A stretch of DNA of 64,000 bases from Phoenix dactylifera. Its lineage: Eukaryota; Streptophyta; Magnoliopsida; Arecales; Arecaceae. Numbering within the stretch: position 1 is the stretch's first letter; each line of letters opens with the position of its first letter. Below are positions 13,144 to 14,002 of the stretch, piece after piece. The notes under the pieces are model-generated. The model did not search any database and had not been told where the DNA came from. It saw only the letters and a list, made by a program, of their open reading frames with translations. The DNA is taken from NCBI RefSeq assembly GCF_009389715.1, contig NW_024067676.1:439501-503500 (forward strand), written 5' to 3'. The position numbers and the translations under genes are program-made.

Positions 13144-13474
13144 TTTATTTAAAGGTGTTTTGCATAAATATCTTTCTAAAATTTAAATTTGTATGAATAC
13201 TTTCTTAAATTTTATATTTATTTCTATACCCTCATAAAATACTGTTTCTGCATAAATGCTCCTAATATAACGGTTCTTCTAACTCCATTAATAAAAACCA
13301 TATTTATTTTAATTAAAAATAAAATAATTTTTTGAAATTATTTTTTTGTCCTCCATTGCGATCAATAGGGATTAATTTTTGAAAAGGGATAAGTACAATG
13401 GGATTCAAGATCCAAAAAAATTAGTAATAGAATATGGATATCGAGATAGGTTCCTATAGGATTGGATTTCCCCC

Positions 13475-13512
13475 TTTAAAATCGGACGTGAAGGTTTCCT
13501 CTCATCCGGCTC
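13475..13512 (-). other. Group II intron domain V-like segment (plastid origin)
   Basis: On the minus strand GAGCCGGATGAGAGGAAACC is followed by TTCACGTCCG, the hairpin shape and sequence style of a group II intron domain V. The surrounding 200 bp also reads like plastid DNA, but I could not name the intron. It lies inside the MULE-like element, next to the psbI piece. Confidence 0.5.
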
Positions 13513-13662
13513 AAGTAGTTACAGCAAAAAAAAGGGGCCCCGAATAATTCAAATCGAAGCAATTTGATGTCTGACTCGGGCCTATATGACATGACCGATC
13601 GATCCTGTTCATGGATTAACGAAAATGTGCAAAAGCTCTATTTGCCTCTGCCATTCTATGAG

Positions 13663-13737
13663 TGATAAAAATCCGAAAATGAAGAGAGAAACAAAGAATA
13701 TCACTACTGTATAAACGAATAGTTTGAGAGTAAGCAT
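13663..13737 (-). pseudogene. psbI: Plastid psbI fragment (NUPT)
   Basis: An ATG at 13737 opens [20 protein letters not shown] plus FGFLS, which matches the first 25 residues of PsbI, the small photosystem II reaction-centre subunit. After that the frame runs into unrelated sequence, so the last third of the gene is missing at a junction near 13,662. In plastids psbI lies near psbK and trnS; here it is next to a group II intron-like piece, so the insert joins two plastid regions. It is not expected to be functional in the nucleus. Confidence 0.85.
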
Positions 13738-14002
13738 TACACAATCTCCAAGATCTCTTATAAATATTTTTTTTTTACACATCTACCCATTAAGAGTATT
13801 TTAATCATTTTAATTTGAAACCGTTAATTTTTAACGCCGTTAAAATATATGGGTACATATGCAAAAATAAAGATAAAAAAAGGTAAAATAGCAAAACAAA
13901 CATTTTACGAGGGTATACATGTAGATATCAATTTTGGAAGGGTATTAATACAAAATTTGATATTTAGGAGAGTATTCATGCAAAAAAGCCCCTTTATTTA
14001 AA

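What the first reader, a model, noticed from the sequence alone, without database searches (positions are those of the whole stretch)
13154..13992. Plastid DNA packed inside a Mutator-like element
Long imperfect inverted repeats with an identical 10-bp duplication (tttatttaaa) enclose not a transposase but about 390 bp of plastid DNA: a 5' psbI piece fused to a group II intron domain V-like segment. Pack-MULEs usually carry nuclear gene pieces; a plastid cargo joined from two places would be notable.
Basis: partly seen in the sequence, partly recalled or inferred. Interest (0 to 1): 0.75.

Follow-up and report, generated by a model that had tools for sequence, protein, structure and literature searches.

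The report
Plastid DNA mosaic inside plant transposon
A small jumping element in a plant chromosome holds a patchwork of chloroplast gene pieces (psbI, rps7 and the end of a group II intron), most likely stitched in during repair of a DNA break; each ingredient is familiar, the combination is a curiosity.

Summary
A Mutator-like element without transposase lies at 13154-13992, with a perfect 10-bp target duplication and ~90-bp inverted ends (62 of 84 aligned bases match; 0 of 1000 shuffles as good). A group II intron domain V-VI lies beyond (13440-13514); of 12 intron ends compared it is most like the plastid rpoC1 intron, likely but unproved. All pieces point the same way. No amino-acid change in 39 codons suggests plastid DNA at most a few per cent diverged, against 26% between the two ends. 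Best reading: plastid fragments filled a break inside an existing MULE. Whether the MULE then moved with the cargo, a true plastid Pack-MULE, could not be tested: no host genome, plastome or mitogenome was held. Mosaic plastid inserts are known; my searches of an open-access library showed no report of one inside a MULE.

The parts
13144..13153 (.). left target-site duplication tttatttaaa
   Evidence: exact 10-mer repeated at 13993-14002
13154..13244 (.). left terminal inverted repeat (aligned part 13158-13241), with ~29-bp sub-repeats
   Evidence: 84 bp aligned to the right end, 74% identical, 0 of 1000 shuffles; sub-repeats 13167-13229
13245..13439 (.). left subterminal stretch, unassigned, AT-rich; may hold further cargo next to the intron end
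   Evidence: no significant similarity to the right subterminal stretch or to the fern plastid contigs
13440..13514 (-). group II intron domains V and VI, probably the 3' end of the plastid rpoC1 intron
   Evidence: RF00029 44.2 bits; best of 12 intron ends is rpoC1; blastn match 13470-13529, 75%, E 1e-7
13515..13615 (-). link between intron piece and rps7; source unassigned except the first bases, reached by the rpoC1 match to 13529
   Evidence: no other match in fern plastid contigs
13616..13663 (-). rps7 3' end: last 15 codons and stop
   Evidence: 15 of 15 residues identical to chloroplast uS7 chain 4v61_AG; 14 of 386 cyanobacterial genomes match here, 7 of the 14 loci read, all uS7; fern plastid rps7 81% over 47 bp
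13663..13737 (-). psbI codons 1-25 (of about 36), cut off at the joint with rps7
   Evidence: 25 of 25 residues identical to 3jcu_I; PF02532 2e-12
13738..13750 (-). psbI 5' flank as far as homology to the fern reaches; true end unknown
   Evidence: blastn alignment spans 13663-13750, 81% of 88 bp
13751..13901 (.). right subterminal stretch, unassigned, AT-rich
   Evidence: no significant similarity to the left subterminal stretch
13902..13992 (.). right terminal inverted repeat (aligned part 13902-13985)
13993..14002 (.). right target-site duplication tttatttaaa

Best explanation
A short non-autonomous Mutator-like element in a plant nuclear chromosome whose interior received a mosaic of plastid fragments. 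Shown: the element's ends and target duplication; psbI and rps7 pieces joined with 0-1 shared base; a group II intron end beyond them; no amino-acid change in the two coding pieces. Inferred: a double-strand break inside the element, random or left by an excision, was repaired by non-homologous end joining that used plastid fragments as filler, after the two ends had diverged. A present function is unlikely: both genes are truncated and only the 3' end of the intron is seen.
For: PsbI 25/25 and chloroplast uS7 15/15 identical residues. Matches of the cargo to fern plastid psbI (contig C286) and rps7 (contig C139) overlap by one base, at query base 138, so two separate plastid loci are joined directly. 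The intron end is most like plastid rpoC1 (rpoC1 label checked). GC is 38% in 13440-13770 against 24% in the rest of the element. No amino-acid change in 39 codons has a simulated probability of 0.16 at 2%, 0.07 at 3%, 0.01 at 5% and 0.001 at 8% divergence, while the ends differ at 22 of 84 positions. Precedent: passages of PMC3989485 describe simultaneous end joining of three plastid fragments from different regions; passages of PMC7037861 describe rearranged inserts and co-location with transposable elements in some species.
Against: All pieces point the same way (one chance in four for three random joins), whereas PMC7037861 describes rearranged inserts as non-uniform in orientation. Divergence was judged on proteins against other species, not against the host's plastome. 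The difference between the two ends may be inherited from older family members and then dates nothing; the unchanged 10-bp duplication fits a fairly young insertion of the whole element. The outer joints of the plastid DNA were not located, and 86 bp in the middle have no match.
Confidence: 0.58

Rival explanations
1. A true Pack-MULE with plastid cargo: the element took up the plastid mosaic, from an earlier nuclear insert or from free fragments, by gap filling or template switching, and then transposed with it to this site.
For: Intact ends and a perfect duplication directly around the cargo-bearing element; cargo between the ends and no transposase; unchanged duplication and unchanged cargo agree in age. 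Gap filling and template switching are proposed for animal Pack-TIRs in PMC8277862 (abstract and passages).
Against: No second copy could be sought, and none lies in the window (best match outside the element E 0.044). The duplication does not tell whether the cargo was aboard at insertion.
Confidence: 0.25
2. The mosaic was formed in the mitochondrial genome, which takes up plastid DNA, and reached the nucleus from there.
For: The domain V also resembles a group II intron on contig C136 (score 27 against 30 for rpoC1; 30 of 33 bases), a contig with a maturase-like frame (TIGR04416, E 0.00012) that may be mitochondrial. Plants commonly carry plastid pieces in mitochondria (recalled), and mixed inserts are reported (PMC6215612, abstract).
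Against: rpoC1 scores higher over a longer stretch (60 bp at 75%); the origin of C136 was not tested; no plant mitogenome was held.
Confidence: 0.13
3. The joints are artefacts of sequence assembly.
For: Organelle reads are abundant in plant sequencing (recalled); no reads could be seen.
Against: Three short pieces placed neatly within an intact element with a perfect duplication are an unlikely misassembly.
Confidence: 0.04

Closest known systems
Complex (rearranged) nuclear plastid insertions, NUPTs
   Same: Short plastid fragments from distant plastid loci joined with little or no shared sequence.
   Different: Lies inside a MULE-like element; all pieces in one orientation.
Pack-MULEs
   Same: MULE-type ends and duplication around foreign gene pieces, chimeric cargo, no transposase.
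   Different: Cargo is plastid, not nuclear gene pieces; mobilisation not shown; ends are shorter and less alike than the 100-500 bp, highly similar ends given for TIR-MULEs in PMC3903597 (passages).
Pack-TIRs made by gap filling (animals, PMC8277862)
   Same: Foreign filler in an element's interior, often a single copy.
   Different: Described in animals; copy number here unknown.

Membership tests
Mutator-like element (MULE) | 9-11 bp target-site duplication (recalled rule) | tested here: met
   perfect 10 bp
Mutator-like element (MULE) | long, similar terminal inverted repeats (100-500 bp for TIR-MULEs, PMC3903597) | tested here: inconclusive
   about 91 bp, 74% over 84 aligned bp, so between TIR and non-TIR MULEs
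Mutator-like element (MULE) | relation to a mudrA-type transposase family | not testable with these tools
   no transposase in the element; host genome not held
Pack-MULE | gene fragments between the inverted ends | tested here: met
   psbI, rps7 and an intron end, all apparently plastid
Pack-MULE | cargo taken up and moved by the element | not testable with these tools
   no other copies or orthologous sites reachable
Complex NUPT | plastid sequence in nuclear surroundings | tested here: met
   cargo as above; window has a DUF659 frame and a Yip1 frame and a snoRNA
Complex NUPT | two or more fragments from separate plastid loci | tested here: met
   psbI on C286, rps7 on C139, one-base overlap in the cargo
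Complex NUPT | end-joining joints with little or no shared sequence | tested here: inconclusive
   met at the psbI/rps7 joint (0-1 bp); the other joints not located

The most novel reading that the evidence does not exclude
A plastid Pack-MULE: a DNA transposon that took up a chimera of psbI, rps7 and rpoC1-intron DNA and carries it about the nuclear genome, giving organelle DNA a way to spread by transposition after it has entered the nucleus.
Probability: 0.25. Interest if true: 0.55.

Novelty: new member of a known kind. Interest (0 to 1): 0.33.

Why it matters
Plastid DNA keeps entering plant nuclei, and MULEs shuffle gene pieces. A plastid mosaic inside a MULE links the two and makes it testable whether breaks in transposons are entry points for organelle DNA and whether transposition then spreads it. 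As it stands both halves are known and the link may be a single accident.

Tried and rejected
psbI fused straight to the intron: rejected, rps7 lies between. ndhB- or rps12-type intron as source of domain V (both lie near rps7; recalled for ndhB): Rfam's Plastid-ndhA-ndhB-2 scores 29.2 against a cut-off of 53, and the two group II ends upstream of fern rps7 score 12 and 11 against 30 for rpoC1. rps14 as a further piece at 13414-13436: 23 bp, E 0.004 or 0.018 by scoring scheme; judged chance. 13350-13445 in 386 cyanobacterial genomes: 30 of 386 have a match at E 0.01 or better, best 5.3e-5, at scattered query positions; the loci were not read; judged chance. Similarity between the inner subterminal stretches: none, 856 of 1000 shuffles as good. 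Plasmids and phages: only matches of 27-47 bp. Viral contigs: psbI patterns, cargo pattern (19), rps7 pattern (49), supposed rpoC1 splice-site pattern (50), no match; domain V pattern, 1 contig, L001, looked at over 401 bases and not followed. Genome contigs: cargo pattern, no match (18); psbI pattern, 1 (22). Strings of the cargo in papers: 0.

Literature: searches (20 of 26 listed; 2 of 2; 20 of 23; 3 of 4; 9 of 9; 20 of 40; 11 of 11; 0) gave no paper that, by listing or by the passages opened, reports plastid DNA in a MULE; (15 of 146 listed) served for mosaic inserts. Passages opened: PMC2528002, PMC10004981, PMC3989485, PMC7037861, PMC8277862, PMC3310237, PMC4053705, PMC3903597, PMC12312487, PMC1657028, PMC5591544. 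PMC8903248 holds none of five terms asked. PMC6215612: abstract and outline. All else: listing only. Most subscription papers are not held, so absence from print is not claimed.

Full report
What was checked. The 839-bp element at 13154-13992 is flanked by a perfect 10-bp duplication, tttatttaaa, at 13144-13153 and 13993-14002. Its ends are inverted repeats: 84 aligned bp, 62 matches, local score 38 where 1000 dinucleotide shuffles gave a mean of 11.3 and a maximum of 20, blastn E 4.7e-8. The left end has ~29-bp sub-repeats. Outside the element the window holds no match to it better than E 0.044. No host genome was held.

The cargo. On the minus strand, codons 1-25 of psbI (13737-13663) encode a peptide identical in 25 of 25 residues to PsbI chain 3jcu_I and match PF02532. 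The sequence then changes frame and becomes the last 15 codons and stop of rps7 (13663-13616), identical in 15 of 15 residues to chloroplast uS7 chain 4v61_AG, the best of 60 matches up to E 10 (E 0.00012). It surfaced because, of 386 cyanobacterial genomes, 16 have a match to the cargo at E 1e-6 or better: 14 at just this stretch and 2 at psbI, one of the two being the plastid-bearing G001. Seven of the 14 loci were read and all seven encode uS7.

A plastid yardstick. A GTDB genome labelled uncultured Trichormus sp. holds contigs of a land-plant plastid: C286 with psbI, chlB and rpoC1, and C139 with rps7 and psbA (families checked). That the plant is the fern Azolla is inference from the symbiont's name. 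The cargo's psbI part matches C286 over 88 bp at 81%, its rps7 part C139 over 47 bp at 81%, and the two matches overlap by a single base. The joint therefore has 0-1 bp of shared sequence and unites two separate plastid loci.

The intron piece. Rfam's group II model matches 13514-13440 at 44.2 bits. Of 12 group II ends compared (9 on the two plastid contigs, 3 on contig C136; all those that passed Rfam's cut-off), rpoC1 scores highest, 30, against 27 for one on C136 and 25 for another plastid intron. With other scoring blastn extends the rpoC1 match to 60 bp at 75%, E 1e-7. Domain VI alone favours rpoC1 narrowly (8 against 7), but the 60 bp upstream do not (6, where others reach 9). rpoC1 is likely, not certain. 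13530-13615 and 13245-13439 were not assigned.

Age. In 39 codons no residue differs from the solved chloroplast proteins. Under random change this has a simulated probability of 0.41 at 1%, 0.16 at 2%, 0.07 at 3%, 0.01 at 5%, and 0 of 4000 at 13%. The ends differ at 26%, or about 13% for each arm if both decayed in place. [quoted passage not shown] So the plastid DNA looks younger than that divergence. But the divergence may be inherited, and the unchanged duplication (probability 0.06 at 13% for each copy) suggests that this insertion is not so old either. Whether the cargo came before or after this insertion stays open.

Mechanism. End joining of several plastid fragments at once is documented (passages of PMC3989485), as are rearranged inserts and their co-location with transposable elements in some species (passages of PMC7037861; there with non-uniform orientation, unlike here). 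Gap filling inside elements is the proposed source of most single-copy Pack-TIRs in animals (PMC8277862, abstract and passages). I favour repair of a break inside the MULE with plastid filler (0.58); transposition with the cargo stays at 0.25, a mitochondrial intermediate at 0.13, an artefact at 0.04.

Limits. The plant is unidentified; that the window is plant nuclear DNA rests on its content. The outer joints are not fixed, and the shared orientation of the pieces is not explained.

Noticed in passing
window 2570-4339 (+): Long open frame with a DUF659 domain (5.5e-53), typical of plant hAT-type transposases (recalled).
   Followed up: partly
window 22799-23584 (-): Open frame with a Yip1 domain (6.1e-12).
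   Followed up: no
window 26159-26276 (-): snoR104 H/ACA snoRNA, 88 bits.
   Followed up: no
window 59150-59221 and 59309-59382 (-); 40026-40100 (+): tRNA-Gln and tRNA-Asn close together, and a weaker tRNA-His.
   Followed up: no
window 50781-50927: About three 48-bp tandem copies within a 387-aa minus-strand frame.
   Followed up: no
L002, L011-L014 (contig C286), L030 (contig C139): A GTDB species genome labelled Trichormus sp. contains land-plant plastid contigs (psbI, chlB, rpoC1; rps7, psbA). The rps7 frame on C139 holds one stop, perhaps mended by RNA editing.
   Followed up: partly
L031 (contig C136): Contig of the same genome with three group II intron ends and a maturase-like frame; may be fern mitochondrial.
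   Followed up: no
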